A stretch of 21,191 nucleotides of DNA from a virus. The notes under the pieces are model-generated. The model was not told where the DNA came from. It searched no databases and saw only the letters and a list, made by a program, of their open reading frames with translations. The translations under genes and the position numbers were made by a program. The number at the start of each line of letters is the position of its first letter. Within the stretch, counting starts at the first letter, position 1. Shown here in pieces: positions 1 through 16,100 of this stretch. The DNA lies in IMG/VR virus record IMGVR_UViG_3300042289_000342, positions 1 to 21,191 of that record; one strand, written 5' to 3'.

Positions 1-910
1 GGATCTTGATACCACGGATCTTGATTCCCGTCTTTGTGGTGGCGTAAAAGAAGGTCGTGTTGGCCACGGCCATCGTGATAACGGCATCCCCATCTGCCCA
101 CACGTCAGAGTTGTTCTTGAGTGTCAGGAAGTTAGTGATCTTGTACGTTCCCGCTGGGAAATAGACTCGCGTGGCCGCAGTCAGCGCTGCCTGAATAGCA
201 GCCGTATCGTCAGCGACTCCATCCCCAACGGCCCCAAAGTCCTTTACGGACACCACATCCTTAAGCTTGGAATCAACAGTCCTGGTAGCTGCACCAGCCC
301 CACTTTGGGTAAATGACAGCTTGCTAGCCGCAATGCCAGCCGCGGCGTTCACATCAGAGTTGACGATTGCACCGTCCTGGATCTTGCTGCTGGTAACCGC
401 ACCGTCCTGGATCTTGCTGCTGGTAACCGCACCGTCCTGGATCTTGCCGCTGGTAACCGCACCGTCCTGGATCTTGATTGTGGTGACGGCATCGCTTGAC
501 AGCTTGTTGGCTGTGATTGACCCGTCTGCGACGTTTGTGTTGGGGTTGATCCCCAATACCTCGATGTAGTCCTTGTGTTCCTGGATAGCGTAGAAGTTCT
601 GCAGGTCAGCGGTATCCAGCGCATCAGCGGTCAAGGCGCTGCCATCGTTCCAATCCACCAAGCGGCTGGTGGTTGGTGTTTCGCGGCGGATGCTCAGCGT
701 TTGGCCAACAACCGGCGCGGCGCTGAGCTGCACCTGTGTAGCACTCGTCCAGGTGTAGTTGACGCCATCGGCCAGCAGCTGCGTGTACCCGCCGCTCTGC
801 AAGCTCAACCCGTAGTACAGCTTGACGTGTGCCCGCAGCAGGTACGGGAACGGCACTGTGAACGTGACCGTTGACCCGTTGCCCGGGTACTGCACGTAGG
901 AGAAGGGCAC
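1..910 (-). CDS. Tail fibre protein, T7 gp17-like N-terminus (3' end cut off by window edge)
   Basis: This is the receptor-binding fibre that attaches to the podovirus tail. My own translation gives about 303 residues before the window edge. Residues 1-125 resemble the T7 gp17 N-terminal tail-attachment domain, with PFPYLLRAHVKLYYG, LVDWNDGSALTADALD and LQNFYAIQEH in the expected order. Four 10-residue repeats of the form AVTSSKIQDG follow at about residues 141-180. From about residue 213, VSVKDFGAVGDG and DDTAAIQAAL match the opening of pectate-lyase-type beta-helix domains, as in many phage fibres and tailspikes. No ATG lies between the upstream stop (937-935) and the conserved N-terminus. 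The first in-frame candidate is GTG at 910, and another GTG lies at 895. Neither has a clear Shine-Dalgarno, so the start is uncertain. The fibre family is clear; the receptor cannot be inferred. Confidence 0.88.
   Translation of the reverse strand, partial: MPFSYVQYPGNGSTVTFTVPFPYLLRAHVKLYYGLSLQSGGYTQLLADGVNYTWTSATQVQLSAAPVVGQTLSIRRETPTTSRLVDWNDGSALTADALDTADLQNFYAIQEHKDYIEVLGINPNTNVADGSITANKLSSDAVTTIKIQDGAVTSGKIQDGAVTSSKIQDGAVTSSKIQDGAIVNSDVNAAAGIAASKLSFTQSGAGAATRTVDSKLKDVVSVKDFGAVGDGVADDTAAIQAALTAATRVYFPAGTYKITNFLTLKNNSDVWADGDAVITMAVANTTFFYATTKTGIKIRGIKI
371..490 (-). repeat. 30-bp tandem repeat, four units, in the fibre gene
   Basis: Units lie at 371-400, 401-430, 431-460 and 461-490. The first two are identical, the third has one mismatch, and the fourth matches for 16 bases and then diverges. 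The period is exactly 10 codons, so each unit encodes AVTSSKIQDG or a variant. Such KIQDGAVT-type repeats occur in the stalks of phage fibres. Copy number could change by slippage without breaking the frame. Confidence 0.95.
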
Positions 911-913
911 GGC

Positions 914-937
914 TAGGTCTGCAGGGCTGTAGACCTA
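914..937 (-). promoter_or_regulatory. Hairpin spanning the stop of the 1165-codon gene, next to the fibre start
   Basis: A perfect 7-bp inverted repeat, TAGGTCT / AGACCTA (minus strand 937-931 and 920-914), encloses a 10-base loop. The 5' arm begins with the TAG stop of the upstream gene. The 3' arm ends 3 bases before the candidate GTG start of the fibre. It could act in RNA processing or translational coupling. The structure is seen in the sequence; the function is inference and the repeat may be chance. Confidence 0.45.
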
Positions 938-3900
938 TTGTGCCGAAACGCCCAGCCCCTTCAAGAACTTGCCGGTTTCCCTCAGTTCTTCCACCGCCTG
1001 CTGGTTCTGAATGATCGTCATTTTGGTCTTGGCCTCGCTCCATTCCTTGGCGGGCTGGCTGGTGCCGGCTGCAGCGCGACGTTCCAGTTCATCCTGCGTC
1101 AGCAGGTCGTAGTAGTCGGTGACACCGCGGATCAGCTTCTGGGCAATCTTCTTCCGGCGCAGTGCCGGCGGCAGGCCGCCAGGAGGGGCGGATGACAGCT
1201 TGTCGTCGTCTTCCAGCCGTTGATACCAAGGGCTGGTGAACAGGGCATAGAGGGCCTCCTTCTTGGTGCGGCCATTGGTGACACGATCAAGGATTTGCGT
1301 GAGAGGCAGGCTGGCGCCGCCATCTTTGCGAATCCTGATCCCGTCGCTGGTGACCGTCTCAATGGGCATCGAGAACCGCGCGTCAACGCTTTTCCCTGCA
1401 AGGCCCATGCGAGCTGATGGCGGCAGATCGGCGGGCGCCTTGATCTTGCCGTGGATGTTGTTGTACTCCTGCTGGAGGTCATCTGACATTGCGATGCCAT
1501 CCAGCTTCCGCTCAAGCAGCGGCTTTGGCGGATCAAGCATGTCCTGCGTGTCGAGCTCGCTGTAGACCACATCGTTGACCTTCCCCTTAGGCCAGACGGC
1601 CGGGAAGAACATGGGGAACGCGCGGGACAGGTTGATGCCAAGGACGTGCCCTCGCGGTGTGCCGAGGTGATCGGCCTCTTTGCGCTTGGCACCCAGGGCG
1701 CCCGCTGCCAATGGAATGGTGTCCATCAGGAAGTTGCGCAGGAACTGCTCTGCCTTCGCTGTCGCGTCGTCCAGTCCCAGCAGGTATTCCTGGTTGGCAG
1801 TGCTCGGTTCGTCGCGGTAGAAGCTCTGGCGGTCCATGCCAAGAGCACGCTCGAGATTCCGTTCTGCACCGATGAATGGGATTTGACCAGCACCCATGAA
1901 GCCGACGAACTGGCTCAGCTTCTCTCCGGCTTTCTCCGTGCCAGACAACATGGCATCAAGCAGCATCTGCAGCTGCTGCACGCCGGCCTGGCGCGTGATG
2001 TGGCTGGTCAGCACCTTCATGGTTGTCATCGCCAGCTCGTTGCCGTCGTAGTCGTTGGTCAGGGCCGATGTCGCCGCGTCCTTCACGTCCTTCCAGAGGA
2101 ACAGGACATTGAGGACCGGGAAGCCGCCGAGCTTCATGCCGAACAGCGTGTTGCGTCGGTCAGGGTCAGGATCGGTCCCGCCGCCAACCTGCCCGGCCGC
2201 ATCAAGCACGCCGAACGCTGCCAGCAGGGCCCCGCTCATCACCCACCCGGCCTTGACTCGAGCGACCAGTTCCGGCGATGCGTCCTTGCCGGCGTTGACC
2301 ATCTTGATCGTGTCGATCACGCCGAACGTGGCCAGGCGGTGATCAAACAGCAGGCCCATGAACGGTGAGCGCCAGTACGGCATCACGTAGCGATCCACCA
2401 TCCAGTTCTGGCGAAGGCCCATCATTCCCCGATCCAGCGCCTCCCCGGGGTTGCCGGTTGGTGCGTCCTGGAAACGCATCTCGGAGGAGTACCGCAGCGC
2501 TTCCACCGATTCCGGTGTGGCCATGGTCGGGGCGCCGGCCATGTTGCGCTCGGCAAGCATCGCCCCGATCTCGTCGTCAGTGAAATCGCTGCCCTTGAGG
2601 CCGTTCTGCTTGCGGAAGGCCTTGATGTCGCTTTCGCTTGGCGTCGCCTGGTAGATCGCTTCATCGAGCTGGCGTTGCACCCATTCCGCCCTGGTCCGGT
2701 CGTCAAACAGCCCGAGCTGATTGCCCTCCATGCGCGCCTTGACCTCGAGGTCGGCTTTCAGCTTGAAGAGGTAGTGGTACTTGCCAAACACCTCATCCAC
2801 GCCAGCCATGGCCCGCAGGGCGGGTTTCCATGGGGTGTAGAGGTCAATGTCCTTCGCGCTGATGCGTTGGATCCCCTCGCCTCTGGAAAGACCAAGGGCA
2901 GCCACCGATGCCTCCAGCCGGTTCATGCCCGTGTTGAACGTGCCGCCTGGCTTGGTGAGGAACAGGATTCGCGCCGCGGCCTGCAGTTTGTTGGTGAAGA
3001 TCCCCATGTTGTGCGGGTTGCCCAGCCGCATAGCCCAGTTGGAGCCAGGCCGGTAGGGCATGTCGAGGATGCCCTGCATGTCCGTGATCTCCTGTTCATT
3101 GGTGAGCAGCCGCTTGCCGTAGGTGTCGAGGTTGCCGCTGTAGTGGCTCACGCCGTTCTGGAACACCCGCTGCAGGTCACGGCTCCAGGTGGAGCGCAGA
3201 GTGGTCCAGGCGTAGTTGTGGGCCTCGCTGGTGACCTTCAGCGCTTCCATCAGTGGGGCGCGGGTGAGTTGCGTGCCGATCGGCGTTAGGCGGGCGCCGT
3301 TGTAGAAGGTCTGCTGCACCGGCCCGAAAATGGCCATCACGCCGTTGCTGCCGAGGTTCAGGTACTGCGTGTTGAGGTTGCCAAGCTGGCTGTCCTTCAC
3401 CAGCGCCGTGGCCATCCGCATGTGGGTGTTGAACCAATCCTTGTCCAGTCGAGACTTCGGATCCAACCCATCAATCTTGGTGGTGTCGATCAGGAAGTCC
3501 AGCTGTTTCGAGTCGCCATTGTCGATCGCTTCAACGACGCGAGCGAAGTGTTCGTCGGCGCCGAGATCCTTGCCGGTCATGCCAATGGCGTCTGTCACGC
3601 CTTGCTCGAACTCATCGCCAAGGTCCAGGCGGAACTGTTCAAGATCGAGAATGTTCTCCTGCTGGCTGCGCAGTGCTTGTGCGTGCCTTCTGGTGACGAG
3701 GTTGTTGTGGCGCTCCATCACCAATGCCAGCTTGTACTGGCGGAAGGCATCTTGCATCAGCTCCGGCGGTGGCTTGGCACCGGGGATGGCTTTCGCGTAA
3801 TCCCGAATCTGCTCAAGGGAGTCGAGGTAGACCCGTTTGGTGCGATCGGCCCAGAATCGCAGCCACAGCTTGTTCTCCACGGCGTTGATTGCCGGGGCGG

Positions 3901-4432
3901 TCTTGACCGCTGCTCGAGCCAGCAGGTCAGCATCACTGGCGCCCAGATCCCGGTAGTAGTCGCTCACCAGCTCGATCAGCTTCTCCTTGCCATAGCGGCG
4001 GGTGACGAAGGCGAAATCGTCTGGCGCGATCCGTTCGTGGGTGATGCCAAGCGCTTCCGCAAAGCGCGCGTAGTCCTCGCGGGTGGAGAGGTCAACCTCG
4101 CGGATCAGGCGGTCGTAGTTCTGAAAGCGACCTTCGCTGCCGAGCGGTCTGGTGCGTTGATCCAGGCCGCGCCCAACAAAGTCATCCACCTGTTTCGATG
4201 ACATGGTGGCGGCCAGCTGCTGATAGCCGCGCTGGACATCCGCCGTGTCCATTTCGCGGGGTGTGCCATCCCGGCCGGGGATGATCACGCTGTCGCCAGG
4301 AGGTGCCGAGACGCGGGTCCATGCAGCGTTGAGCTGCCGGTCGATGCCTTCCAGCTCCTGCTGCAGTTCGCGCTTGCGCTGCTGCAGTTCCTGGTCGCGT
4401 TGGAAAGCGTCGTCGCAGTTGTTGGCGGTCAT
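935..4432 (-). CDS. Large internal virion protein in the gp16 position (1165 aa)
   Basis: I recognise this by position and size: it is the last giant gene before the fibre, as T7 gene 16 (1318 aa) is. It probably belongs to the internal core ejected into the cell at infection. The N-terminus (residues 1-40) is a charged, Gln/Glu/Arg-rich predicted coiled coil. The middle is largely helical. A hydrophobic alanine/glycine/leucine stretch at about residues 725-745, around VMSGALLAAFGVL, could insert into a membrane. The C-terminus is again charged and helical. I see no catalytic motif, and the SLT transglycosylase domain at the N-terminus of T7 gp16 is absent; a wall-cutting domain is instead found on the protein encoded at 8983-11865. 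ATG at 4432 follows AGGAGG (4443-4448) with a 10-base gap, and the gene starts 2 bases after the preceding stop. The C-terminal half resembles regions I associate with large phage internal or polyvalent proteins, without certainty. Confidence 0.8.
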   Translation of the reverse strand: MTANNCDDAFQRDQELQQRKRELQQELEGIDRQLNAAWTRVSAPPGDSVIIPGRDGTPREMDTADVQRGYQQLAATMSSKQVDDFVGRGLDQRTRPLGSEGRFQNYDRLIREVDLSTREDYARFAEALGITHERIAPDDFAFVTRRYGKEKLIELVSDYYRDLGASDADLLARAAVKTAPAINAVENKLWLRFWADRTKRVYLDSLEQIRDYAKAIPGAKPPPELMQDAFRQYKLALVMERHNNLVTRRHAQALRSQQENILDLEQFRLDLGDEFEQGVTDAIGMTGKDLGADEHFARVVEAIDNGDSKQLDFLIDTTKIDGLDPKSRLDKDWFNTHMRMATALVKDSQLGNLNTQYLNLGSNGVMAIFGPVQQTFYNGARLTPIGTQLTRAPLMEALKVTSEAHNYAWTTLRSTWSRDLQRVFQNGVSHYSGNLDTYGKRLLTNEQEITDMQGILDMPYRPGSNWAMRLGNPHNMGIFTNKLQAAARILFLTKPGGTFNTGMNRLEASVAALGLSRGEGIQRISAKDIDLYTPWKPALRAMAGVDEVFGKYHYLFKLKADLEVKARMEGNQLGLFDDRTRAEWVQRQLDEAIYQATPSESDIKAFRKQNGLKGSDFTDDEIGAMLAERNMAGAPTMATPESVEALRYSSEMRFQDAPTGNPGEALDRGMMGLRQNWMVDRYVMPYWRSPFMGLLFDHRLATFGVIDTIKMVNAGKDASPELVARVKAGWVMSGALLAAFGVLDAAGQVGGGTDPDPDRRNTLFGMKLGGFPVLNVLFLWKDVKDAATSALTNDYDGNELAMTTMKVLTSHITRQAGVQQLQMLLDAMLSGTEKAGEKLSQFVGFMGAGQIPFIGAERNLERALGMDRQSFYRDEPSTANQEYLLGLDDATAKAEQFLRNFLMDTIPLAAGALGAKRKEADHLGTPRGHVLGINLSRAFPMFFPAVWPKGKVNDVVYSELDTQDMLDPPKPLLERKLDGIAMSDDLQQEYNNIHGKIKAPADLPPSARMGLAGKSVDARFSMPIETVTSDGIRIRKDGGASLPLTQILDRVTNGRTKKEALYALFTSPWYQRLEDDDKLSSAPPGGLPPALRRKKIAQKLIRGVTDYYDLLTQDELERRAAAGTSQPAKEWSEAKTKMTIIQNQQAVEELRETGKFLKGLGVSAQ

Positions 4433-4434
4433 GG

Positions 4435-7400
4435 TCAGCAGCCCTCCTGTTCGGCCTTGCGGCGGTTGTCGATGATCTGTTCGTCGAGGTCGTCAATCTG
4501 GCGTTGAAGGCGCTGTTGACTGACCTTGGTGGGCGGGGGGTCGCCGCCCTCGCGGGCCAGGAACGGTTGCGCCGGCAGTTCAATCTGCCCGGGGTTGCCC
4601 TTGGCTGCTTGTTTCAGCGCCGCCCGCACCGTCTGCCCATGGGCTACCACCTCGTCAAGATTGAGCCCTGCCTCCTTGACCACCTGGCGGAACTTGGCGG
4701 CCGATTTGCTGGGCTTGATCGCGTCGTTGGCCAGCACGTAAGCCGTGCGATCCAGGTCGGACTGGAAGGTGATGGTGTTGCGTCCGTAGCGAGGCGATGC
4801 CTGGCGCAGATCCTGCGGCAGGAGTAGCTCTGGCTGCGACGCGGACAACGCCAAGCGGACGGGCGCAGGGCGGACGGGCGCCGGGGCCAGCTCATCCAGT
4901 CCCTGGCGGATGTTGGCCATCGCCTGTCCTGTCCGCCGATACAGGCGGGCGTCGGACTGGGCCATCTCCCGCATCTGGCCTTCGATTGCATCAGCAAGCG
5001 GCGTTGCGCTCCGTGGCGCCGCTGCGGCGGTTTGCTGCACTGCTCGCATCGCCTCGGCAAAGTTTTGGACTAACTCCATCGCCTGCGATTCGGTTGCATG
5101 TCCAGTGGCTACGAGACTTCGCGCCATTTCGGCGGGGATTTGACTGGCATTTATTCCTGTTTCGGCGAATCGACGCGAAGCACCTTGCATCCGAATTAAG
5201 GCCGCCAGGTCTGCGCTTGATGGATTTCCTCGCTGAATACGAACAAGCGCTTCAGGATTCAGCCTTCGCGCTGCAATTACGGCTAGGTATCCAGGATCCA
5301 GCGTCTCTACGTCAGAATGAGCCTTGATCATTTCGTCAAGCTCGTCAACCGTTGGGCGCGAATCACCGCTTTCTCCATACACAAGCCGCTCCTGCTCTGG
5401 CGTCAGGTTGCCGAATCGTGCGTCAAACTCAGCTGAAGCTGCATCCGCTCGCTTTCGATTACTGCTGTTCCGTGCACGATCCAATCGCTTGAACTCTTTT
5501 GCACCTGCTTCGCCAAGCGCAATAATCAAGTCAGCGTCGTCTTCGTTCCTTGCGGCTTCGCGCATGGCACGCAAGCCGGCCTGGTCTTCCCATAGGGATT
5601 GAGCTGCCGTGCTGGGGATGATTGCATCAGCAAGCGGCGTTGCGCTCCGTGGCGCCGCTGCAGCGGTCTGGATGGCACTGTCATCCCGGACTAGGGCCTT
5701 TATCTTGGCTTCAATCTGGGGCAGCTCGTATCCCTGCATGAGCTTGTCCCAGTTGGCGCTTCCACCAGCCAGATCAAACCAATCAGGGACGCCACCCAAG
5801 CGCTTGAAGGTGTCTAACCATTGCTGCTCGGTAATGCCCCAGCGCCCTCGGCCTCGGTTGTGCCCGCCAAGCCGTCGCGCCGTTTGAGCTGGATTTGCAT
5901 TGGAGTCAAGCCGAACGCCAGGAGCTGGCAGCACTTCCGGCGTGATCGCCTTGCCCAGATCAGCCGTCAGCCCCAGCTCTTTCTTCTCCTCGAAGGTCAG
6001 CAGCTCGTAGTCGTTGGCGTCCTTCACCGCCTTTTCCTGCAGTTCCTGCAGTGCCGCATCAGCCCGGGCGTGCTCGAGCGCCAGTCGCGTCTCATCCGCC
6101 AAGGCCTGGGCCGCCCTGCTGCCGGGGGTGATCGGTTCGTTCGGATCAAGCTCATCCAGTCGCACCTGAGCCGGGGCCGGCAGCTCAGGGATCGGAGCAT
6201 TGGGCGGTCGCACCTCGCCGCCAGCGATTGCTTCCTGCAGCAGCCGGGCTTCAGCTGCGTCGCGTTGCTCGGCCGTGAGCTCTACCGGCTGCGACGTCTC
6301 ATCAGCCTGACGCCCGGCTGCAGCGAAAATGTCCTCTTGCACTACGTCGGTGGCGGGTGCCACCTCCTTGCCCATCGCTTCCTGGATGGAAGCCGCCAGT
6401 CGGTTCTTGATGCCCTTGGCCACCTGGGCCGCCTGCTCGCCCGCCAGCACCCTCTGCGTGCCCTCGTTGAGCAGATCGCCCACCGGGCCGGTCTGGTACT
6501 TGAGATCATCAAAGATCGCCAGCGCGCGACTGGCCTCTCCGCTGATGTCCTTGGCGGCGGTGGCATCCACTTGGCCCACCCGCTCGATCTGACCGGCTTG
6601 GCGGCCAACGGTGCCAAACAGCTTTTTCTCCTTGCTGAGCAGCAGCCGGACGGCTCCAGCCACCTCGGCCTTGGCCAACATGCCGGCGTTGAAGTTCTGC
6701 GCCCATTCAGTTCCCGACAGGAGGTCGGGCTGATCAGCGGAAGACGATGCCGGCGAGCTCTTGGACATCGCCAGCATTTCCCGCAGCGTGCCCTCTTTCA
6801 CGTTGTCCGGGCCCTGCTGCACCAAGTAGCGGTAGGCCGACCGCATCGTTTCCTCGTCCACCCCTGATTCGCCGATGATCACTGCACGGCGCAGCGGGAT
6901 CTGCTCATTCACCGCTGCGGTGAACACGTCCTCGGGCAACCGGCCAACGGCAATGCCGTCTTTCCAGAAGCCGCTGGCGCCTGGCTTTCCCAGTGCCTTC
7001 AGCTGCGCCGGATCCTTGATGTCGTACTCGCGGGCCAGCTTGGCCGCATCAAACACCGTGCCCTTGCCGTCGCTCACATTGGAGATGGCGCCTTGCAGCC
7101 GGGCATCGGCTGCCGTGGGTCCGTCGAGGTATTCCACCCGCATCGACGGAATCCCCATGCGCTTGGCCGCCGCCAACCTGTTGTGACCGTTGACGACGTA
7201 GACCCGGCCCGGGTCGCCAATCTCGCCGCCAGCATCACGCCACACCTGGATGATGCCCTCGGCGCTGGGATCCCAGCGCTCCACTCCCGACAACGAGTTG
7301 CCGATCTGTTCGCCCGCCTCGTTGACGCCGCCCTTGTACTGGAACACCAGCGGGGCGGCTTGCACCTCGCCCGTGGGCAGCATCTGCGCGCCCATCATCC

Positions 7401-8979
7401 GATTCACGATTGGAACTCGCCCTTCGGCTGCCATGGCGCCAAACGTGTCGAGCATGTCGGCCTTGCTCAGCTGGCCCGGGTCGTCCACTCCGGTCAGCGC
7501 CTGGGCTTTCTGCCACAGCTGCGGATTGGCCTCTGCATCGAACAGTGGCCGAAGCTCGTAATCCTCGCGGCCACCCAGCTTGCGCATGACCGATGGCAGG
7601 TAGTCATCCGCCAAGCGATCAGCGGGGGCCATCACCATGCCGGCATCCATCGGGGGCGGCGCCTGCACCTGCGCCCTGGCCTCGAGCGTCTGGTTGACCC
7701 GCTCCACCACTGGCGAGCCCGGGCTGTTCAGCACGATCTGCAGTTCGCTGTCGCTCAGCTCCTCGATGCCTTTGCCCAGCGCGGTGCTCTCCGGCAGCTC
7801 AGGGTCGTAATCCCATGGGCGCTCTTGACGTGGTTCGTAGATGGCGCCCATGTCGGCGCCGGGATTGGTTGGATCCTGGAGCTCTGCGCTCGGAATCGGT
7901 TTGGGCTCTGGCGACGCCACGTTCGTTGGCGCAGCGGCCGGCTCGGGTCGCGCCGCATTGCTGGGCATGCCAAGCCGCTGCTCCATCGCGGCATTGGCTT
8001 CCTGGAACGATGGCTCGCGTGGGGCCGGCGCCGGTGGCTCCATCGCCTGCGGCGTGAAATCCAGCCCATCCGCTTCATCCTTCTCGAGCAGGCCCATTGC
8101 TTCCTGCTTGGCGCGTTGCCTCGTCTCCTGCTGCACGGCGCGGGTGGCGCGGGTGTTGCGGCGGATGTTGCGGAAGGCTGCGGCGCCCAGTGAAACCGTG
8201 CCGCCAACCGCGGCGCCCAGCGCAACGCCGAACGCGGCATTGGGCACCAGTGATTGATTTGCGGCATCGAGCATGTCGGCCTTGCCGACATCCACGGCGC
8301 CGGGCAGCTTCAACCCCGTTGTCTCGTTGATCAGATTGACGATGTTGCCGCCGGTGTTGTCGTCGAGGTATGTGCTCAGCGCTTCGTTGACAGCAAATGC
8401 GGCGCCACCGCGGACGGCTGCGCCAAGGGCAGTGGTCGCACGGGCCACGCCAAATCCAGGTGTCACCGGCGCCAGCATCACGTTGAGAGAAACCGATCGG
8501 CGGAACTGATCGCCGCTGCGCTCGTCTTGCGTCATCTGCGACGGGGGCTTGGCGCCCAGCGCGGTGTAGACGCGATCCACCGTCTGATCAAGGTGCCCCC
8601 CGAAACGCCCAGAAGAAGCGTCAGCTTTCGGTCGGCCGCTGGCTCTTTGGGCATAGGAGTAGCCCACTCGCATGGCGTTGTCGCCAACGCCGGCAACGCC
8701 CAACCCGACCCCCTGCAGCGGGCTTGAAGCCACTGCGCGGGACAGTCCGCCGACGTACCGCTGCAATGGGTTGGCGGGGCGCGGCCGGTTGAACAGCTCG
8801 TAGCGGATGTCATTCGAGAGCTTCTCGAAGAAACCCTTGGGCTTCGGCTTCGGCTTGCTCCTTGGCTTGGCGGCTGGCGGCTTGGCAGGTTGCTGCCGCA
8901 CCGCCGGCACCAGATCGCTGCTCTGCTGCGCGCCGGTCAACACCAGCCGGCCATTCACGATCTTGTGTTCTTGTGGCAT
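4435..8979 (-). CDS. Giant internal virion protein with ParB-like domain (1514 aa, polyvalent-type)
   Basis: This is probably a core protein injected with the DNA. The N-terminus is Lys/Pro-rich (KPKPKPKGFFEKL), followed by Ala/Gly-rich, possibly membrane-active stretches to about residue 290 and a Pro-rich linker to about 450. Around residues 500-655 lies a domain resembling the ParB/sulfiredoxin superfamily as found in phage polyvalent proteins. Its core is VYVVNGHNRLAAAKRMG near residue 600, followed by a DGPTAADAR segment and GKGTVFDAAKLARE. Relatives can be nucleases or CTPases, but activity here is unproven. Residues 1105-1332 include a repeat-bounded segment described separately. The C-terminal part has YGRNTITFQSDLDRTAYVLA, reminiscent of domains shared by large phage polyvalent proteins. 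ATG at 8979 follows AGGAAC with a short gap and lies 3 bases after the previous stop. T7 has no equivalent of this domain. Confidence 0.82.
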   Translation of the reverse strand: MPQEHKIVNGRLVLTGAQQSSDLVPAVRQQPAKPPAAKPRSKPKPKPKGFFEKLSNDIRYELFNRPRPANPLQRYVGGLSRAVASSPLQGVGLGVAGVGDNAMRVGYSYAQRASGRPKADASSGRFGGHLDQTVDRVYTALGAKPPSQMTQDERSGDQFRRSVSLNVMLAPVTPGFGVARATTALGAAVRGGAAFAVNEALSTYLDDNTGGNIVNLINETTGLKLPGAVDVGKADMLDAANQSLVPNAAFGVALGAAVGGTVSLGAAAFRNIRRNTRATRAVQQETRQRAKQEAMGLLEKDEADGLDFTPQAMEPPAPAPREPSFQEANAAMEQRLGMPSNAARPEPAAAPTNVASPEPKPIPSAELQDPTNPGADMGAIYEPRQERPWDYDPELPESTALGKGIEELSDSELQIVLNSPGSPVVERVNQTLEARAQVQAPPPMDAGMVMAPADRLADDYLPSVMRKLGGREDYELRPLFDAEANPQLWQKAQALTGVDDPGQLSKADMLDTFGAMAAEGRVPIVNRMMGAQMLPTGEVQAAPLVFQYKGGVNEAGEQIGNSLSGVERWDPSAEGIIQVWRDAGGEIGDPGRVYVVNGHNRLAAAKRMGIPSMRVEYLDGPTAADARLQGAISNVSDGKGTVFDAAKLAREYDIKDPAQLKALGKPGASGFWKDGIAVGRLPEDVFTAAVNEQIPLRRAVIIGESGVDEETMRSAYRYLVQQGPDNVKEGTLREMLAMSKSSPASSSADQPDLLSGTEWAQNFNAGMLAKAEVAGAVRLLLSKEKKLFGTVGRQAGQIERVGQVDATAAKDISGEASRALAIFDDLKYQTGPVGDLLNEGTQRVLAGEQAAQVAKGIKNRLAASIQEAMGKEVAPATDVVQEDIFAAAGRQADETSQPVELTAEQRDAAEARLLQEAIAGGEVRPPNAPIPELPAPAQVRLDELDPNEPITPGSRAAQALADETRLALEHARADAALQELQEKAVKDANDYELLTFEEKKELGLTADLGKAITPEVLPAPGVRLDSNANPAQTARRLGGHNRGRGRWGITEQQWLDTFKRLGGVPDWFDLAGGSANWDKLMQGYELPQIEAKIKALVRDDSAIQTAAAAPRSATPLADAIIPSTAAQSLWEDQAGLRAMREAARNEDDADLIIALGEAGAKEFKRLDRARNSSNRKRADAASAEFDARFGNLTPEQERLVYGESGDSRPTVDELDEMIKAHSDVETLDPGYLAVIAARRLNPEALVRIQRGNPSSADLAALIRMQGASRRFAETGINASQIPAEMARSLVATGHATESQAMELVQNFAEAMRAVQQTAAAAPRSATPLADAIEGQMREMAQSDARLYRRTGQAMANIRQGLDELAPAPVRPAPVRLALSASQPELLLPQDLRQASPRYGRNTITFQSDLDRTAYVLANDAIKPSKSAAKFRQVVKEAGLNLDEVVAHGQTVRAALKQAAKGNPGQIELPAQPFLAREGGDPPPTKVSQQRLQRQIDDLDEQIIDNRRKAEQEGC
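4984..5031 (-). repeat. 48-bp direct repeat, copy nearer the 3' end of the 1514-codon gene
   Basis: This copy differs from the one at 5620-5667 by a single base, with the first 42 bases identical. Both copies are read in the same frame and encode TAAAAPRSATPLADAI. The near-identity at DNA level points to recent duplication or recombination, not only protein-level constraint. Confidence 0.95.
5032..5619 (-). other. Lower-GC in-frame segment between the direct repeats (domain cassette)
   Basis: The repeat-to-repeat period is 636 bases, exactly 212 codons. By hand count, 5041-5640 is about 55% GC, while lines sampled from neighbouring parts of the gene are about 63-70%. The encoded segment is helical and charged, with ARFGNLTPEQERLVYGESGD, PTVDELDEMIKAHSDVETLD and LAVIAARRLNPEAL. 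I do not recognise its fold. Recombination between the repeats would remove it and leave a 1302-residue protein in frame. Acquisition from elsewhere is inference. Confidence 0.6.
5620..5667 (-). repeat. 48-bp direct repeat, copy nearer the 5' end of the 1514-codon gene
   Basis: This is the partner of 4984-5031, in the same orientation and frame with one mismatch. It encodes TAAAAPRSATPLADAI at about residues 1105-1120. The two copies bracket the lower-GC segment. Confidence 0.95.
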
Positions 8980-8982
8980 GGG

Positions 8983-11865
8983 TCAGGTTCCTGTGCGAAG
9001 AAATGCCGCCCTGGCGCGCTGCAGCACGGCGCGAGCGCTTTCACGCCCAATCGAGGCGCGGTTGCCGCCCTGGTTCGGGTAGGCCGTGCCGCCGCCGCGC
9101 GTGGCCACGGACGCCCACTCCAGTGCGATGTCGTCCAGCGCCGCGTTGATGTTGTTGTTCTTGCCGCGCAGGTATGCCGCCAACGCCGGCCGCTTGCTCC
9201 CGATCATCAGCTGCACGGCCAGCCGGTCCTGAACAGCCGGACTCATCACCGTGTCGTCGGAAACGCCGGCCTCCCGAGCAGCGAGCTCCAGCGTTCGTGG
9301 GATGAACTGGTATGCACCGAGAGCGTTGTACCCGCGTCGTTGATAGGCCTTCCACTGCGCCAGGGTCATGCGGCTCAGCCCTGGGATGCCGCCCGGCGTG
9401 TCACCAGCCATGCCACGGTTGGCCGAATCCCATCCGCCTTCGCCACTGCGCAACAGCGCCAGCACAGGCGCAAACGGGCGGACGGCGGTCACAGCCCTAT
9501 CCATAAAAGGGCCTCCGCCATTCCGGCCGCCCCCTTCTCTCATGGCAACCATGGGCGCCGCCGTTGCTGCCGTGGTGCCCGTCAGCGCATTGAAGAACCA
9601 GCCCATGGTCGAGGCGATTGGGCTGGGCGGTGCCGCAGCAGCTCGCTCAGCGCCGATCACGCCCTGGGCATCACGACTGCTGCGCAGCAGGCGTTTCCGC
9701 ACATCAGGCGCGATCTTGTAGGTCGGGAAGTTCTCGGCTTCACGCAGCAACCACTGGCCCACGTTGTTGCCGTAGCCCGCGTCGCGCGCGGCGCGAATCA
9801 CTGCCGCGCTGGGCGCCTGACCGTTGTAGACCCTGGCAACCTCCTCCTGCACGCTCGGCAGCGCCAGCACTGGCTGACCGCTCTGCAGTAGCTCCTTGCG
9901 TCTTGGCAGGTTGTCGAGCTGGCCTGATGGGTAAACCGTTGGCGCCGGTTTGGCGGGTGTGCCGGCGCCGCTGCCGCCGGTCCGTGGCGGCCGTGCCTTG
10001 CCACTCACGGAAGGCTGGTTGGTTTGGTCGGAGCCAGGGAACAGGCGATCGAAGTTTTCCTTGTCGTTCTTGCCGTACTCCTCGAGGGCGCGGCTGGCCA
10101 CGCTTGTGATCTCAGGGACAGTCAGGCTCGCGCCCTTCTTCTTGGTGGCCTCTGCAATCCGGGCGTAGACGTGCGCCTGGTACGCCGACAGCTGCAGCTG
10201 CGCTGAGCGGGCAATGTCGGCGTCGCCCCAGGCCAGCAGGCTGGTGATGTCTGAACCCCGAAGCGATGCTTCCGTCACGTCCGTGGGATAGGCCCACCGC
10301 AGGCGGCTCTTGATCGCCGCAGTGATCAGCGGGGTTACGAGATGGCCGGGCACATCGTCTTTCTCCTTCTCCTTGGAGCGGTAGATGTCGGCGAACCGCT
10401 GGCGCACCTGATCCCGGTCTTGAGGGGCCACGTTGGTGATGTTTGCTTCAAGCTCTCGGGTGGCTGTTTCTGGATCCCACAAGGGGCCCACGCGCCCCTG
10501 CATGTCCATCAGCAGCGCATCCATGCCGGATCGGTCGTAACTGCGCCCTGCCACCGCATCGAGCGTGCTGCTCATGTTCTTGGTGGACTCCATCAGGCGG
10601 TTCAGCGGCACGTTCGCCCGCTGGTATTTCCTCACCAAATTGTTGATTGCCTGGCCGCGCTCCGGGCCGTCTGGCATCCCCTGGGTGACAACAGCCAGCT
10701 CAGACTCGAAGGTCTGGACTCCTTGATCGGCCGCGCGCTGCTGCTGCTGCCATGTCGCCTGGGCAATCTTGTTGCCCTCCTCAAACATTTCAATGCCATA
10801 GAACTCACCAGCCAGCGCCCTGCGTCCGTTCTTGTCCGGCGGCCCAACCTCAGTGGACAGCAGGATCCGCTTGAGCTCAGGGTTGCCGCTGAGCTCTGCC
10901 ATCTCTGCCAACCGGACAAACATCTGCCGCTTCAGGGCGCTCGGCTCGCCAGTGATGCCGGTTTCGTTTGCCAGGCGGTCACCCGTTTGGGCCGCCAGGA
11001 TCTGGATGCCGCGCTCCCATGCCGCACGGTCCTTGCCAAGCTGCGCGACCCTCTTGATCTGCCGGCCGCTGACGGGATCGAACTCAGTCCATTCGATTTC
11101 GCCTGAAGTGCGCGCCCGCTCGTAAATCGCGCCCACCTCTACTGACGCCTGCCGCCAAGAGGTTTCCTTGAGGTGCTTGACCCGATCATCAACATGCCGC
11201 TCGTAGAGCTTCATGCCGGCCTGGCCGATCTGCGGCAGGACGTGCTCAATGAAGCCGGGCGACCCTTCGTTCAGCCCAAAACGCTGCACGACATCCTGAA
11301 CCGCTTGCGCCTCGATCCGCTTCAACTCCGGCGAGCCGATGTCCAGCTCGGCCACGTTGGGGGTGTTGCGATAGCGGTCCATCACGGCCGGCAGGATCCT
11401 CTGCCCTGCGACGCGCGCCAGTGAGTTTTGACGACCGCCTTCTCGGAACGGGTTGACCCGATCCATCATCATTGCCGCGATCGGATCGGCCTTGTCGAGC
11501 TTGCGGTTCTCGGCGGCGTACTGGGCCTGTGATTGCTGCATCTGCTGGTTGGCCAGCACTGCTGCACGCATGGCCTCGCTGCGGCCCTTCTCGTACTCAG
11601 AGCTGGCGTAGAGCTCAAGCCCAGCACCCCCCAGCTGCACCAGATCACGACTGAATGGCGCCAGGGCCTGTGCCAGCTCTTGCCACTGGTTGACGCCACC
11701 GACATTGCCGCCGCTGCCCTGGCCGATTGTGCGGATGCCGCCAGGGTTGGGCATCATCTGCAGCTGCGCTGGCGCGGCCACGTTCTGCTGGGCAGGACGA
11801 ATGAACGCATCAACCGGGCGTGCTGCCGGGATGATCTGGTTCTGGCCGAGATCGCTGCGTGTCAT
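8983..11865 (-). CDS. Internal virion protein (gp15 position) with C-terminal lysozyme-like domain (960 aa)
   Basis: The gene lies directly after the gp14-like gene, where T7 encodes core protein gp15 (747 aa). Residues 1 to about 620 are mostly helical and polar, as expected for a core protein. A Gly/Pro/Ser linker follows at about 625-660. The C-terminal 150 residues look like a peptidoglycan-cutting domain of the lambda lysozyme (GH104) type: LLRSGEGGW with a likely catalytic Glu at 809, MTLAQWKAYQRRGYNALGAYQFIPRTL, SPAVQDRLAVQLM, and ALEWASV followed by GGGTAY. The order and spacing parallel SEG...GAGRYQLL...QD..AL...IWASLPGAGYG of lambda R. It would locally open the wall during DNA ejection. 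T7 carries this role as an SLT domain on gp16, so the domain type and host protein both differ here. ATG at 11865 overlaps the upstream stop as ATGA. Confidence 0.83.
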   Translation of the reverse strand: MTRSDLGQNQIIPAARPVDAFIRPAQQNVAAPAQLQMMPNPGGIRTIGQGSGGNVGGVNQWQELAQALAPFSRDLVQLGGAGLELYASSEYEKGRSEAMRAAVLANQQMQQSQAQYAAENRKLDKADPIAAMMMDRVNPFREGGRQNSLARVAGQRILPAVMDRYRNTPNVAELDIGSPELKRIEAQAVQDVVQRFGLNEGSPGFIEHVLPQIGQAGMKLYERHVDDRVKHLKETSWRQASVEVGAIYERARTSGEIEWTEFDPVSGRQIKRVAQLGKDRAAWERGIQILAAQTGDRLANETGITGEPSALKRQMFVRLAEMAELSGNPELKRILLSTEVGPPDKNGRRALAGEFYGIEMFEEGNKIAQATWQQQQRAADQGVQTFESELAVVTQGMPDGPERGQAINNLVRKYQRANVPLNRLMESTKNMSSTLDAVAGRSYDRSGMDALLMDMQGRVGPLWDPETATRELEANITNVAPQDRDQVRQRFADIYRSKEKEKDDVPGHLVTPLITAAIKSRLRWAYPTDVTEASLRGSDITSLLAWGDADIARSAQLQLSAYQAHVYARIAEATKKKGASLTVPEITSVASRALEEYGKNDKENFDRLFPGSDQTNQPSVSGKARPPRTGGSGAGTPAKPAPTVYPSGQLDNLPRRKELLQSGQPVLALPSVQEEVARVYNGQAPSAAVIRAARDAGYGNNVGQWLLREAENFPTYKIAPDVRKRLLRSSRDAQGVIGAERAAAAPPSPIASTMGWFFNALTGTTAATAAPMVAMREGGGRNGGGPFMDRAVTAVRPFAPVLALLRSGEGGWDSANRGMAGDTPGGIPGLSRMTLAQWKAYQRRGYNALGAYQFIPRTLELAAREAGVSDDTVMSPAVQDRLAVQLMIGSKRPALAAYLRGKNNNINAALDDIALEWASVATRGGGTAYPNQGGNRASIGRESARAVLQRARAAFLRTGT

Positions 11866-12707
11866 TTGCCTTTACCCTTGCCGCCGCCTTTGCCCTTGTC
11901 GCCGCCGCCGGTGTACGACTTCAGCGTGGAATAGGTGCTGATCCCTGTCTGCACGCCGCTCAGCACCGCGCCGCCGATGCGCAGTGCCGCCGCGGCACCG
12001 CTAGGACCGGAACCTGTCATCGTTGGCGCCGGCGCCTCGAGCAGCGCTGGCAATGGCGCGAACGGTGCCACCGGCTCCATGTACGGCTGCATCTCGTAGA
12101 AGGTCTGCGAGTTGTACCGACTCAGGTACTCAGCCACCTGCCCCGCCTGCTCGCGGGTGTACTGCCTGGTGCGGAACCCTTCGTTGATCTGTTGGATCGT
12201 CTGGTAGTCGCCCACCTGGCGCACGTAGTCGTTGATCATCCGGTCAACTGACGCACCGGCCTGATCGCTTGCCATCGCCCGCCCGCGTGCTTTCAGGGCG
12301 GCAACCTGATACTGCTGCATGGCCACGGCCTCACGCATTGAGGCTTCGCTGGCCTGCTGGCTCATCGCTTCGCTGCTGCTCACATAGGCGGCACCAGCTG
12401 CGGCCCGCGTCTCGCCAACCAGATCCGCCTGCGCGATCGCCTTCAGCGTTTCGTAGTTCCGCAGGCTGCGGCTGTACGCCAGGTTCTGGTTGTAGTTGAC
12501 CGTCTCCTGCCAGTAGTTGTACTGGGAGTTGGCATCAGCGACCCTGGCGCTGAAGCCGGCCTGCCACCTGGCGAACTCAGTGTTGGCGTTCTGGAACGCC
12601 ACCTGATTCATGTAGTCCTGTTTGGCGGCAGCACTCTCGGCGCTGGCTCCAAAGGCTCCGAGGATGGCCTGTGCGCCACCAACTGCAAGGGCGAAGGGGA
12701 AGGCCAT
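11862..12707 (-). CDS. Internal virion protein B, T7 gp14-like (281 aa)
   Basis: A small core protein expected at the portal end of the internal core and ejected into the host envelope. The N-terminus has an alanine-rich hydrophobic stretch (FALAVGGAQAILGAFGASA), then a long helical Gln/Ala/Asn-rich region, typical of gp14-like proteins such as T7 gp14 (196 aa). The C-terminus is odd: a glycine-rich region ends in alternating Gly/Lys (GGGDKGKGGGKGKGK), a flexible basic tail that could contact DNA or membrane. ATG at 12707 shares one base with the upstream stop (TGATG) and follows GGAGG with an 8-base gap. The downstream gene overlaps by 4 bases. Identification rests on position plus composition; sequence identity to T7 gp14 is low. 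Confidence 0.78.
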   Translation of the reverse strand: MAFPFALAVGGAQAILGAFGASAESAAAKQDYMNQVAFQNANTEFARWQAGFSARVADANSQYNYWQETVNYNQNLAYSRSLRNYETLKAIAQADLVGETRAAAGAAYVSSSEAMSQQASEASMREAVAMQQYQVAALKARGRAMASDQAGASVDRMINDYVRQVGDYQTIQQINEGFRTRQYTREQAGQVAEYLSRYNSQTFYEMQPYMEPVAPFAPLPALLEAPAPTMTGSGPSGAAAALRIGGAVLSGVQTGISTYSTLKSYTGGGDKGKGGGKGKGK

Positions 12708-13165
12708 CAGACCGCCCTCCAGAAGTGGCAGAACAGCTGGCAGCTGCGCCCCATCGGCTCAGGTGTGTCGATCGTGAACCCGAGATGCCGCAGCCATCGC
12801 AGCGTGGTCAGGTTGCTCGCCAGCGCCCAGTTCTCCAGATACCGGAAGCCGTGCCGCTCGAACAGCGAATCCACCCACCGCCGGCCTTCCCGCAGAAACT
12901 GACGCCGATTACCGGCAGTGGCCAACAGCTCATCGGTGGCCAGCAGCCAGATCACGCTGCCCCCGTCGCCGCCGACGCCACAGATGCCCACAGCGCTCCC
13001 GTCTTCTGCACCAATGCAACGACAGATTGAGGACATGCGCCAGCTCTCTTGCACGGCTAATTCTGCCGTCAGCTGGTGGCTGTAGAGGACTTCCAGCCGA
13101 TCCTGGTAACGCATCCGCTCGGCAATGCGCTGCACCCCTGCAGGCGTTGGTTCAATCCACCTCAT
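12707..13165 (-). CDS. GNAT-fold internal virion protein A, T7 gp13-like (152 aa)
   Basis: Size and position match T7 gp13 (138 aa), a small protein between the nozzle and gp14 genes that is needed for assembly. The fold looks like an acetyltransferase (GNAT) domain: VGICGVGGDGGSVIWLLATDEL in the strand/loop region, a helix around FLREGRRWVDSLFERH, then NWALASNLTTLRWLRHLGF, typical of the end of GNAT folds in phage proteins of this kind. Whether it acetylates anything is unknown. I chose ATG at 13165 over the upstream in-frame start at 13210 because GAGGAG (13172-13177) sits 6 bases before it, and because ATGA overlaps the nozzle stop. Confidence 0.8.
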   Translation of the reverse strand: MRWIEPTPAGVQRIAERMRYQDRLEVLYSHQLTAELAVQESWRMSSICRCIGAEDGSAVGICGVGGDGGSVIWLLATDELLATAGNRRQFLREGRRWVDSLFERHGFRYLENWALASNLTTLRWLRHLGFTIDTPEPMGRSCQLFCHFWRAV

Positions 13166-16100
13166 TGCAGGCTCCTCGCCTGGCCGGTCATCAGGCCCAC
13201 CCACTCGCACGAACTGAACTTGCAGGGGTGTGGCGTGTCGTTCAGCAGCTCAACGACGCAGTTCTCGCCGCGACTGTTGATCGGGATGCGAAACACCCCC
13301 TCGGCGTAACGCATCGCCTCGGCCTCGGCCTGGTTCAGCGAGCTGCCAATCAGCGAATTGCGGCTGCCCAGAATCGTGCCATCAAACGTATAAGTGGCCG
13401 CATCGCGCCGTTCCGCCATCACCTGCACCCTGAAATAGAAGGTTTCGTGGTAACGCAACTTGGCATGACGCACTTGCGTTCTCATCACATTGGCTGCAGT
13501 CTTGCCGCCGCCGATGTCCCGATACAGCTTGAATCGCGTGAAGCGATAGCGGAAGGTGAACGCCTCCCCGAAGAACACCGGCGCCGTGCTCCAGTTGCCA
13601 AATGCTGTGATCGTGTTGCCGCTGCTTGCCTGCCCCAGCAGCACGCCACCGTTAACCGTCGCACTCCAGCCGCTCCATGCCTGCGTCAGCGCTTGGATGG
13701 TGTACGGCAGCGTCCAGGTGGTGGTGTTCTGCACAGCGTTGTAGGTGCCGGCCGCCACGCGCAGCGCCACAGGCGTCGCCGTGGTTGTGGTCACCGTCCG
13801 ATCCAGCAGCAGCAGCGATGGGCTTGGGCTGGCACTGGTCATCCGGTCAGTCACTGGCATCGACTCCAGCCAGACCTCCGTCCCGTACCGCACCAGCAGG
13901 TACAGCACTTCCTCCACGCACAGGATCGAGAGAATCTCGTCAGCCCCGCTCAGCTCCCAGTGGCTCCAGCTGGACTGGGCGCGTTCCACGCCGCCACCGG
14001 TGTTGCGGTAGAGGTATTTGTAGACGTAGATCCGTTTCTGGTAACCGCTGGCGCTTGAGATAGCAAACCAAGCATTGCCCGTATCATTAGCCGTCAGCTT
14101 GAATGTCCCGGATGGGATGTAGCTGGACACTGCCATCGTTAGATCCGACGCATCCGCAATCAGCGCAGTGCCCGCGCCGCGCACACTGAACTCGCGGAAC
14201 TGACTCCACTGCCCGTTGGCCATGCAGAACACAATCGTGCCCTGCACCGGAATCGGCCGGCAGTTGGGATCCATCTCGTAGCTGGTCAGCACCGTGATCT
14301 GCGCTGTGCTGGGTGTCAGCACGGTTTCAGCAGCGTTGAACCGGAACTGGATCTGATCGGAGAAGATGATGAGCTCGTCCTGGTACGGCACTGCATACCG
14401 CAGCACGCTCACCCGGTTGTTGCTGGCCGCAAGGTCGATCGGGTCTGAATCCAGAATTGCCGTGACCGTTTCCGGGAAGAACTCAAAGAAGTCCCGCGCC
14501 CGGCTGAGGATCACGTTCTCGTCTGCCAGGAACCCGAGCCGGTTCTTGTAGATGAAAACGTCCTGGATCGGCTGGCCGATGAACGATGGATCCGGTGCCG
14601 TGTCGTAATCGCCGGCAGTGCGCTGCCCCCAGGTGGGGATCGTAACGCCGCTCACGATGGCGCCATTAGCCGGGCCAAACCAGAACGCGCCGGTTGGCAG
14701 CCGCACCAACAGATGCGGCATCGTGCCCTGATTGATCCGGTACTCAACGCCGGGGCTGACCGTTTCCTGCCAGCTGCCCTCACCAAACGTGCCGCTGCGG
14801 CAAACGAAACTCACGTAGTAGCCATCGAACTTGTTGCCCGGATCGCCTACCACCTCGATCTGATAGCCGGACGGTGCGATCGTCGGCAGCTCGGTGAACG
14901 CCTGCACGCTGTTGGTGATCGCCGTGATGTCCGCGTTCGCCCTGGCATCGGTGGCAGCAAGCGTGATCGCGCTGCTGCTGGTGAGATGCAGCACCGAACC
15001 GCTGCGAGCAATCGTGACCCCCGTCAGCGGGCCGGCCGCGGCGGTGCTCACCGTTGCCACCTGAACCGCTGTTTCGTCAATCACATGGGCTTTCACCGTG
15101 GCAATCTGCATCGCCGTGGTGTCGGAGTTGGTGACCGCAGTGATTGTGGCAACGTGAACCTGCGTCGTGTCCGATCCGCTGCCGTCCAGAACATTCCTGG
15201 CAATGTAAATCTTGGAGCCAACGTGATACCGCACGCCAGCAGCGTTGACGGTGATGGCAGTCACGGCCGTGCCATTGCCGGTGACATTCAGCGTCAGGCC
15301 AGTGCCTCCGGTGTTGTTCGTGGTGGCCAGGCCGGTGGCAGTGGCATTGCGCGTTGTGGTTGCGCCCTGGTTGCTGAGCGTGCTGACGGGGCCACCCTGC
15401 AAGCGGTTTCGAGCTACTGAAATGGCGCCATCCGCTCGATAGCCGCTGCCTGGGTTGTTGCCAACAACCGTTGCCGTCAGCTTTGCGCCATCGCCTGTGA
15501 TCGTCACAGTCAGCCCGCTGCCGCTGCCGCCAGTGGTCGGCACGTTAATCAAGGTGCCGTTCAGCGTGCTGCCGGCTCCCTCGTTGTTCAAAGCCGTCAC
15601 CCCGCCACCGTTCAGCAGCCCGCGCTGCACGAACACCCTGTCACCGGCGCGATAGCCCGATCCGGCAACATTGATCGCCGCAGCTGTGATGACGCTGCCG
15701 TTGCCGGTCACATTCACGGTCAGCCCGCTGCCGCCCTCGTCGGTGGTCGTCGCAGTGCCGGTGACGGTGCCGTTCAGCGTGGTCGCCGAACCCTGCACGG
15801 TGATGGCCGAAGGTGCGCCACCCAGCAGCGCCCCACGAAGTCGCGCAGCAATCTCTGCCGTGCTGACCCGGTTCTCGGTCGTCGTGCTGCCACTCACAAC
15901 CACAGGCGCCACAGCAGTGGACACCGTGACCTGCTGGCTGTTGATGTTGAGCGTGTAGCTCTGGCCGTAGTTGGCCGCCTTTACCCACACCAGCGCTTCG
16001 TTCGCGGCTGGCCGGGCCACAGCAGGCGCCAGGGCAGTGTCCATCGCTGGCACGGCCTTGGTGTTGCTGATGAAGGTGTAGTCGGCGATCGAGGCGGCCC

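What the first reader, a model, noticed from the sequence alone, without database searches (positions are those of the whole stretch)
4984..5667. Repeat-bounded, lower-GC domain cassette inside a giant ejected protein
Two 48-bp direct repeats with one mismatch flank 588 bp inside the 1514-codon gene. The period is 636 bp (212 codons), so loss or gain keeps the frame. The segment is about 55% GC by hand count against roughly 63-70% in sampled neighbouring lines. Near-identical DNA repeats suggest a recent event. This looks like modular exchange of effector domains in a protein delivered to the host.
Basis: partly seen in the sequence, partly recalled or inferred. Interest (0 to 1): 0.72.

Follow-up and report, generated by a model that had tools for sequence, protein, structure and literature searches.

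The report
Swappable domain in phage injected protein
A virus of bacteria carries, inside a giant protein that it probably injects into its host, what looks like a recently inserted foreign domain between two copies of a short DNA repeat, at a spot where related viruses carry other domains or none.

Summary
A 48-nt direct repeat (one mismatch) flanks 588 nt inside a 1514-codon gene, period 636 nt. The segment (module C) has GC3 0.495; synonymous resampling from the rest of the window expects 0.785 (z = -10.3).

Contig L001 is colinear with the window at 96-99% over about 14.5 kb, with large breaks only at this slot and at a second slot near the gene's 3' end. L001 and L004 have one repeat copy and an ADP-ribosyltransferase-like domain there; some more distant relatives have short linker-like stretches. 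C is a domain family: it lies at other places in giant phage proteins on 8 contigs, in three of four scanned beside SLT, LPD38 or ddrB-ParB, with no significant Pfam or PHROGs match. The 70%-identical copy lies in a protein whose backbone is 35% identical. Module B, just upstream, is 97% DNA-identical over 304 nt to an otherwise distant giant gene.

Best reading: a payload slot in a polyvalent-like ejected protein, caught soon after an insertion that duplicated a 51-nt linker. Ejection, effector action and copying route are inferred; an assembly chimera is not excluded. The general phenomenon is known; the domain family and the duplication appear unreported in what I searched.

The parts
4435..8979 (-). 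giant gene, 1514 codons, probable ejected (internal virion) multidomain protein
   Evidence: open frame; follows a gp14-like gene (PF24072, 22.6 bits, below cut-off) and a 960-aa gene with an endolysin-type part (phrog_90); relatives are large unannotated proteins in the same place of T7-like genomes
5981..8979 (-). backbone A (codons 1-1000), shared with relatives; residues 533-840 match the extension of phrog_21; a GHNR motif there looks ParB-like but no profile confirmed it
   Evidence: 97.8% and 99.2% DNA identity to L001 in two pieces; phrog_21 E=2.3e-21; no ParB model in Pfam; no match to the ddrB-ParB stretch of L093
5671..5956 (-). module B (about 95 aa, motif RGRWGITEQQW)
   Evidence: 97.0% DNA identity over 304 nt to L006/L007; no other DNA match in the held part of L006 and one of 66 nt in L007; 64% and 56% aa to L005 and L002; GC3 z=-3.7
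5620..5670 (-). repeat copy 1 (peptide QTAAAAPRSATPLADAI), read as a truncated duplicate of the connector
   Evidence: DNA comparison with L006 and L001; not followed by the connector helix
5032..5619 (-). module C, the cassette: 196 codons, predicted all-helical domain with motifs FxRLDRxxNS and FGNLTPEQERLxYG
   Evidence: family alignment A4; relatives on 8 contigs; GC3 z=-10.3; AlphaFold2 pLDDT 82.6
4984..5034 (-). repeat copy 2, native connector position (followed by EGQMREMAQSDARLYRR, as the single copy in L001 and L004)
4543..4983 (-). module D, shared backbone after the slot
   Evidence: 96.3% DNA to L001, 97.5% to L004
4542..4543 (.). second payload slot, empty here; L001/L004 carry 924 nt more with a zincin-like HEAFH motif at this junction
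   Evidence: hhalign of eight relatives' slot-2 stretches against the L001 module, probability 99.4; no HExxH in the window protein
4435..4542 (-). module E, conserved C-terminal 35 residues and stop
   Evidence: 98.1% DNA to L001 and L004

Best explanation
The gene encodes a large, probably virion-packaged and ejected protein built like a polyvalent protein: a conserved backbone (A, D, E) with two payload slots, one between A and D and one between D and E, joined by Ala/Pro-rich linkers. The slots are filled, emptied and swapped between phages. In the window's lineage slot 1 holds module B, shared at 97% DNA identity with a distant giant phage gene, and module C, a helical domain that seems to have arrived recently from a source with lower GC3. 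Module C was inserted at the B/connector junction, and 51 nt of that junction were duplicated, so that the frame stays open on both sides. Most likely this was a double template switch or strand-annealing event during mixed infection, in which copying returned 51 nt upstream of where it had left. Because the repeats are in frame (636 nt), annealing between them could delete module C cleanly. Module C would enter the host with the other ejected parts and act there early in infection. Shown here: repeat, foreign codon use, colinearity break, alternative payloads, spread of C and B. Inferred: ejection, effector role, order of events, copying route, reversibility.
For: Colinearity with L001 at 96-99% over window 232-14802, with large breaks only at the two slots. 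L001/L004 have the connector once, preceded by an ART-like domain instead of B-C. L012, L013 and L015 also lose DNA alignment across slot 1. The ART-like label rests on the domain's relatives: 11 of 13 match DUF3990 and 7 of 13 ART-PolyVal, weakly. C is 70% identical in L063 where backbone A is 35% identical, and sits on the other side of A there. C also lies in giant proteins with SLT+LPD38 (L092), ddrB-ParB (L093) and LPD38 (L095). B is 97% DNA-identical to L006/L007 and stands in slot 2 on another contig. Copy 2 is in the native place: the full connector motif occurs in 7 of 78 distinct giants, window included, and of these 7 only the window has its first half twice. In their first 11 nt each copy differs from the end of B in L006 by one letter, a different one in each; the rest equals the L001 connector. 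The same repeat search found no such pair in 86 other giant ORFs.
Against: Only one contig shows repeat-C-repeat, so an assembly chimera cannot be excluded (the tools may also leave out records very near the window's). Ejection was not tested. The window protein has no Pfam domain above its cut-off. The ParB-like stretch did not match the ddrB-ParB stretch of L093 nor any ParB model in Pfam. C has no significant family and no fold match, so 'effector' is a guess from context. The likeness of the start of copy 2 to the end of B is only 11 nt; it could be the end of C itself, which in L063 is also Ala/Pro-rich, and then the order of events is open. In other members of the C family the GC3 of C is slightly below the rest of the gene (L092, L093, L095), clearly below (L063) or above (L096, L097), so the donor is unknown. 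The copying route is one of several that would leave such a repeat.
Confidence: 0.76

Rival explanations
1. Assembly chimera: two phage populations share the repeat, and the assembler joined B-repeat-D of one with C-repeat of another.
For: The window is a virus record classed as linear, often a fragment; exact repeats of 42 nt are the kind of place where short-read assemblies go wrong; no second contig shows the same arrangement.
Against: The frame is open across both junctions. The two copies differ from each other at two places, which a collapsed single repeat would not give. Domain exchange at this slot is seen on other contigs.
Confidence: 0.12
2. The repeat is a functional protein linker (for example a processing or hinge sequence) that payload domains carry at their ends, and its duplication is selected at protein level rather than being only an insertion scar. 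This does not exclude the best explanation.
For: The connector peptide is conserved in some relatives (7 of 78 distinct giants) and other payloads also sit between Ala/Pro-rich linkers, by eye.
Against: The copies agree at 49 of 51 nt including third positions, so the likeness is at DNA level and recent. In the 6 other giants with the motif it occurs once, and no other giant ORF of 86 has a repeat pair of this kind.
Confidence: 0.08
3. Module C is old in this lineage and was lost by L001, L004 and other relatives through recombination between the repeats.
For: Repeat-mediated loss would leave one in-frame repeat, as L001 and L004 have.
Against: L001/L004 lack B as well and have another domain in the slot; L013, L019, L020 and L024 have only short linker-like stretches; C has foreign codon use; its nearest relative found is in a distant protein at another place.
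Confidence: 0.06
4. A self-splicing or homing element (intein, group I intron, transposon with target duplication).
For: An in-frame insertion flanked by a direct repeat.
Against: No intein, HINT, transposase or endonuclease family matches C in Pfam or PHROGs; C is a domain kept inside other proteins; 51 nt is far longer than usual target duplications (recalled).
Confidence: 0.02

Closest known systems
Polyvalent proteins of phages and conjugative elements (Iyer et al. 2017, PMC5512222; seen: abstract, sections on ARTs, ParB, genomic contexts and evolution, and passages)
   Same: Very large protein beside virion genes; payload domains exchanged among relatives; relatives of the window protein carry ART-like and zincin-like domains, and relatives of C lie with LPD38, SLT and ddrB-ParB domains. 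The paper already reports extensive mosaicism (up to 50 domain combinations in one group) and kinase cassettes suggestive of recombinational variability.
   Different: Module C has no significant Pfam or PHROGs match. The window protein itself has no recognised enzymatic domain and lacks a zincin motif. The 51-nt DNA duplication points to a single recent insertion; the search terms 'direct repeat', 'linker' and 'shuffl' do not occur in that paper's main text.
T7-like ejection proteins gp14-gp16 (review Swanson et al. 2022, PMC8954989; seen: abstract and the section on conservation)
   Same: Similar gene order: a gp14-like gene, a large gene with a peptidoglycan-cleaving part, then giant genes; [quoted passage not shown]
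   Different: No match of the 1514-aa protein labelled as gp15 or gp16 was found in Pfam or PHROGs.
Autographiviridae phages with giant unannotated proteins at this place (uncultured Nohivirus S31C1, Prochlorococcus phages P-SCSP1)
   Same: A homologous giant gene after the tail tubular genes.
   Different: 27-33% identity over 20-36% of the query in 19 records; annotated 'hypothetical protein'. Module C has no match in the phage collection.

Membership tests
Polyvalent proteins | Several domains of disparate activity in one polypeptide | tested here: inconclusive
   Modules A, B, C, D delimited by comparison, but none has a recognised activity in the window protein; ART-like and zincin-like domains are present in the near-identical L001
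Polyvalent proteins | Domains shared with other polyvalent proteins | tested here: met
   Module C lies in giant proteins with LPD38, SLT or ddrB-ParB above Pfam cut-off in 3 of 4 C-bearing proteins scanned (L092, L093, L095; none in L063)
Polyvalent proteins | Gene next to late/virion genes (phage type) | tested here: met
   Head-tail connector (PF12236, phrog_449), gp14-like and endolysin-type genes on the same strand; same order in annotated relatives
Polyvalent proteins | DdrB-like ParB domain (common, not obligatory) | tested here: not met
   Pfam gives no ParB model for any of 13 members of the motif region; hhalign against the ddrB-ParB stretch of L093 gives probability 0.1; only a weak PHROGs ParB hit in L002 (E=0.052)
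Polyvalent proteins | Zincin-like metallopeptidase for processing (common, not obligatory) | tested here: not met
   No HExxH in the window protein; by a loose motif, slot 2 holds one in 29 of the 41 giants with both anchors, near-duplicates included
Polyvalent proteins / ejection proteins | Protein is packaged and injected with the DNA | not testable with these tools
   Needs virion proteomics and ejection assays
T7-like ejection protein cluster | Cluster gp14-like, then large gp15/gp16-like genes, one with a peptidoglycan-cleaving domain | tested here: met
   PF24072 E=1.1e-4, 22.6 bits (below its 27-bit cut-off); phrog_90 endolysin E=1.6e-10 in the 960-aa protein; order as
T7-like ejection protein cluster | Sequence homology of the giant protein to T7 gp15 or gp16 | tested here: inconclusive
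   No Pfam or PHROGs match so labelled; a review calls gp15-like homologues hard to match by sequence (PMC8954989)
ADP-ribosyltransferase (slot-1 module X of L001, not in the window) | Profile match to an ART family | tested here: inconclusive
   Among 13 relatives of X, 11 match DUF3990 (best E 7e-7) and 7 match ART-PolyVal (best E 8e-4), but the L001 member itself matches no family and hhalign with two other ART-like domains gives only a 23-column motif match. That DUF3990 belongs to the ART superfamily is recalled

The most novel reading that the evidence does not exclude
Slot 1 works as a capture-and-release cassette site. Payload domains, including an unnamed helical family (module C), are stitched into an ejected phage protein at Ala/Pro-rich linkers across phage groups. 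The insertion leaves an in-frame direct repeat, so that phage recombination can delete the payload precisely and a population carries both armed and unarmed protein.
Probability: 0.2. Interest if true: 0.72.

Novelty: new member of a known kind. Interest (0 to 1): 0.5.

Why it matters
Giant ejected proteins are among the first phage products to meet the host cell, yet most of their domains are unnamed. This locus shows at base resolution how a domain seems to enter such a protein: a nearly identical relative shows the site without it, the codon usage marks it as foreign, and the duplicated linker marks the joint. It delimits one payload family (module C) that can be expressed and tested, and it points to two slots where further payloads can be collected by comparing close relatives.

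Tried and rejected
Searches for module C from the single window sequence found nothing in viral contigs, genome contigs, phages or plasmids. The family appeared only after one relative turned up inside L063 and was used as a two-row and then five-row query. A second genome scan with the two-row query again found nothing, and tblastn of the L093 member found nothing in phages. These locus scans depend on short conserved peptides, so absence is weak evidence.

Fold comparison of the C model gave no clear match: Foldseek 0 hits at E <= 0.001 in PDB and in viral models, best VIA-align Z 5.6 over 83 residues, within what unrelated helical bundles give. Profiles of C, B, X and the ParB-like region found no convincing solved structure. 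Four of 13 members of the ParB-like region gave a Pfam match to Fe-ADH (best E 0.0019), which I regard as chance.

I considered an ancestor A-X-B-connector-D from which L001 lost B and the window lost X, because the linker AITP stands before B here and after X in L001. The contig carrying both X and B (L103/L136) has B in slot 2, not next to X, so this order is not shown. A tandem duplication was rejected because C has no match to its flanks in the self-comparison of the giants. A degenerate pattern of the connector peptide found only the L001 and L004 contigs again. An alignment of the ParB-like region with partly misplaced coordinates was replaced by a better one. My motif scan for B missed L022, where blastp finds it; the regular expression for the connector missed diverged forms visible by eye in L060, L064 and L045.

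On print: seven paper searches listed no report of repeat-flanked domain insertion in a phage ejected protein. The library is limited to openly licensed papers, I judged by listings, and I opened only two papers, in part.

Full report
Observation. The repeat is real and far beyond chance. Copies lie at 4984-5034 and 5620-5670 (51 nt, 2 mismatches), with a 48-nt core and period 636 nt. The longest exact run is 42 nt against 13-18 nt in 30 random sequences. They lie in an uninterrupted 1514-codon gene, 4435-8979 minus. The 588-nt interior (module C) has GC 0.553 and GC3 0.495. Among 437 overlapping windows of the same length in ten window genes the lowest GC is 0.580 and the lowest GC3 0.684. 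Resampling synonymous codons from the rest of the window gives 0.785 +/- 0.028, z = -10.3, 0 of 2000 as low, while two control segments are ordinary.

Setting. On the same strand lie a head-tail connector (portal-type) gene (PF12236), capsid and tail tubular genes that I name by position (compare), a gp14-like gene (PF24072, below its cut-off), a 960-aa gene with an endolysin-type C-terminal part, the giant gene and a 1165-aa gene. A like order is annotated in Nohivirus S31C1 and Prochlorococcus phage P-SCSP1a, both listed as Autographiviridae. The giant protein is therefore probably one of the proteins carried in the head and ejected; this was not tested.

Near relatives. L001 is colinear with the window at 96-99% from 232 to 14802. 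The large breaks are the slot around the repeat and a second slot at 4542/4543, where L001 and L004 have 924 nt more. There are also a 111-nt length difference near codon 219 and a net 60-nt difference within 232-4542. In L001 and L004 slot 1 holds a segment of about 630 nt followed by one copy of the connector. That segment belongs to a family in which 11 of 13 members match DUF3990 and 7 of 13 ART-PolyVal, though the L001 member itself matches neither; I call it ART-like. The 924-nt module aligns with slot-2 stretches of eight other relatives at hhalign probability 99.4 and has an HEAFH motif. L012, L013 and L015 also lose DNA alignment across slot 1.

Wider family. A scan with four giant proteins found 264 relatives, of which the best 80 were kept. 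In the loci then held, 86 ORFs carry the backbone; with the window, 78 of 87 are distinct by their last 600 residues. Both slot anchors were found in 41; the others lacked an anchor or were under 800 residues and were not counted. In those 41, which include near-duplicates such as L001 and L004, slot 1 is 13-380 residues long and slot 2 49-543. By loose motifs, slot 2 holds a zincin in 29 of 41 and an ART in 1; slot 1 holds an ART in 3 and a zincin in 2. L013, L019, L020 and L024 have stretches of 53-127 residues in slot 1 that look like linker. Module B is in slot 1 in the window, L002 and L005 and in slot 2 on L103/L136.

Module C. Among the 86 ORFs only L063 has it: 70% identical, on the other side of backbone A, which is only 35% identical there. 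Two profile scans brought relatives on 8 contigs in all; L093/L094 and L097/L098 agree closely, and L098 is cut. Hosts of the domain include a 2260-aa protein with SLT and LPD38, a 1324-aa protein with ddrB-ParB and a 1940-aa protein with LPD38, and two 1402-1413-aa proteins. No Pfam or PHROGs family matches C significantly (best E 0.02 and 0.074). With five sequences AlphaFold2 gives an all-helical domain, pLDDT 82.6, pTM 0.69. No structure matched it at E <= 0.001, and the best Z of 5.6 is not meaningful for helices. It is best described as an unnamed domain of polyvalent-type proteins with conserved FxRLDRxxNS and FGNLTPEQERLxYG motifs.

How the repeat arose. The connector with its following helix (TPLADAIEGQMREMAQSDARLY in the window) was found in 7 of 78 distinct giants, window included; of these 7 only the window has its first half twice. 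Copy 2 is therefore read as native and copy 1 as a truncated duplicate. The first 11 nt of each copy differ by one letter from the end of module B as it stands in L006, and the rest equals the L001 connector. The simplest reading is that B was joined to the connector first and that this joint was then duplicated on both sides of C. But 11 nt are few, and the start of copy 2 could instead be the end of C, which is Ala/Pro-rich in L063 too. The same repeat search found no such pair in the 86 other giant ORFs. A template switch to a donor and back, landing 51 nt upstream, or annealing repair, would give this; the route is inferred. The divergence of the copies (2 of 51) is of the order of that between the window and L001 (52 of 2340 in the backbone, 18 of 485 after the slot), so the insertion may be about as old as that split; the sample is too small for more. 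Module B was also shared recently with a distant phage: 9 differences in 304 nt to L006, with no other DNA match in the held part of L006 and one further 66-nt match to L007; the L006 giant protein is only 29% identical to backbone A.

Known or new. Iyer et al. 2017 (PMC5512222; abstract, four sections and passages seen) describe polyvalent proteins, ART and zincin domains in them, LPD domains of unknown function, extensive mosaicism and cassette-like variation. Swanson et al. 2022 (PMC8954989; abstract and one section seen) describe domain swapping among ejection proteins. This locus is therefore a new member of a known kind. The additions are a domain family without a library entry and a clear insertion scar. 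Membership is partial: shared domains and gene context are met; ddrB-ParB and zincin are not met in the window protein; injection is untested.

Limits. The window is a virus record classed as linear, which is often a fragment. No second sequence shows repeat-C-repeat, and the tools may leave out records very near the window's. The effector role of C is a guess from context.

Noticed in passing
window 369-488: Four 30-nt tandem copies coding a ten-residue repeat, near the start of what is probably the tail-fibre gene (minus strand).
   Followed up: no
window 231-296: DNA similarity to L001 ends at 232, and an 89%-identical 66-nt piece of the otherwise different contig L007 begins at 231: perhaps a second exchange boundary, in the probable tail-fibre region.
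   Followed up: no
window 15271-15749: Three diverged copies at 216 and 210 nt spacing inside the 1107-aa tail tubular B-like gene (13162-16485).
   Followed up: no
window near 8321 (giant gene codon 219): L001 has 37 extra codons here relative to the window.
   Followed up: no
L096 2349-6587 and L097 5516-9721: Two C-bearing giant proteins are 90-100% identical per 100 alignment columns over the first 600 and at most 60% after that: another sharp mosaic boundary just after module C.
   Followed up: partly
L006 4608-13013: A 2802-aa giant phage protein holding module B, a zincin-like HEAFH motif and a PARP/ART-like domain (PF00644 26.5 bits, just under the cut-off of 26.7).
   Followed up: partly
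giant proteins of L006, L014 and L021: A further exchanged module, recognised by eye (motif around VRAKG...LDPDAIP), follows module B in L006 and stands in slot 1 of L014 and L021; a diverged form is in L016.
   Followed up: partly
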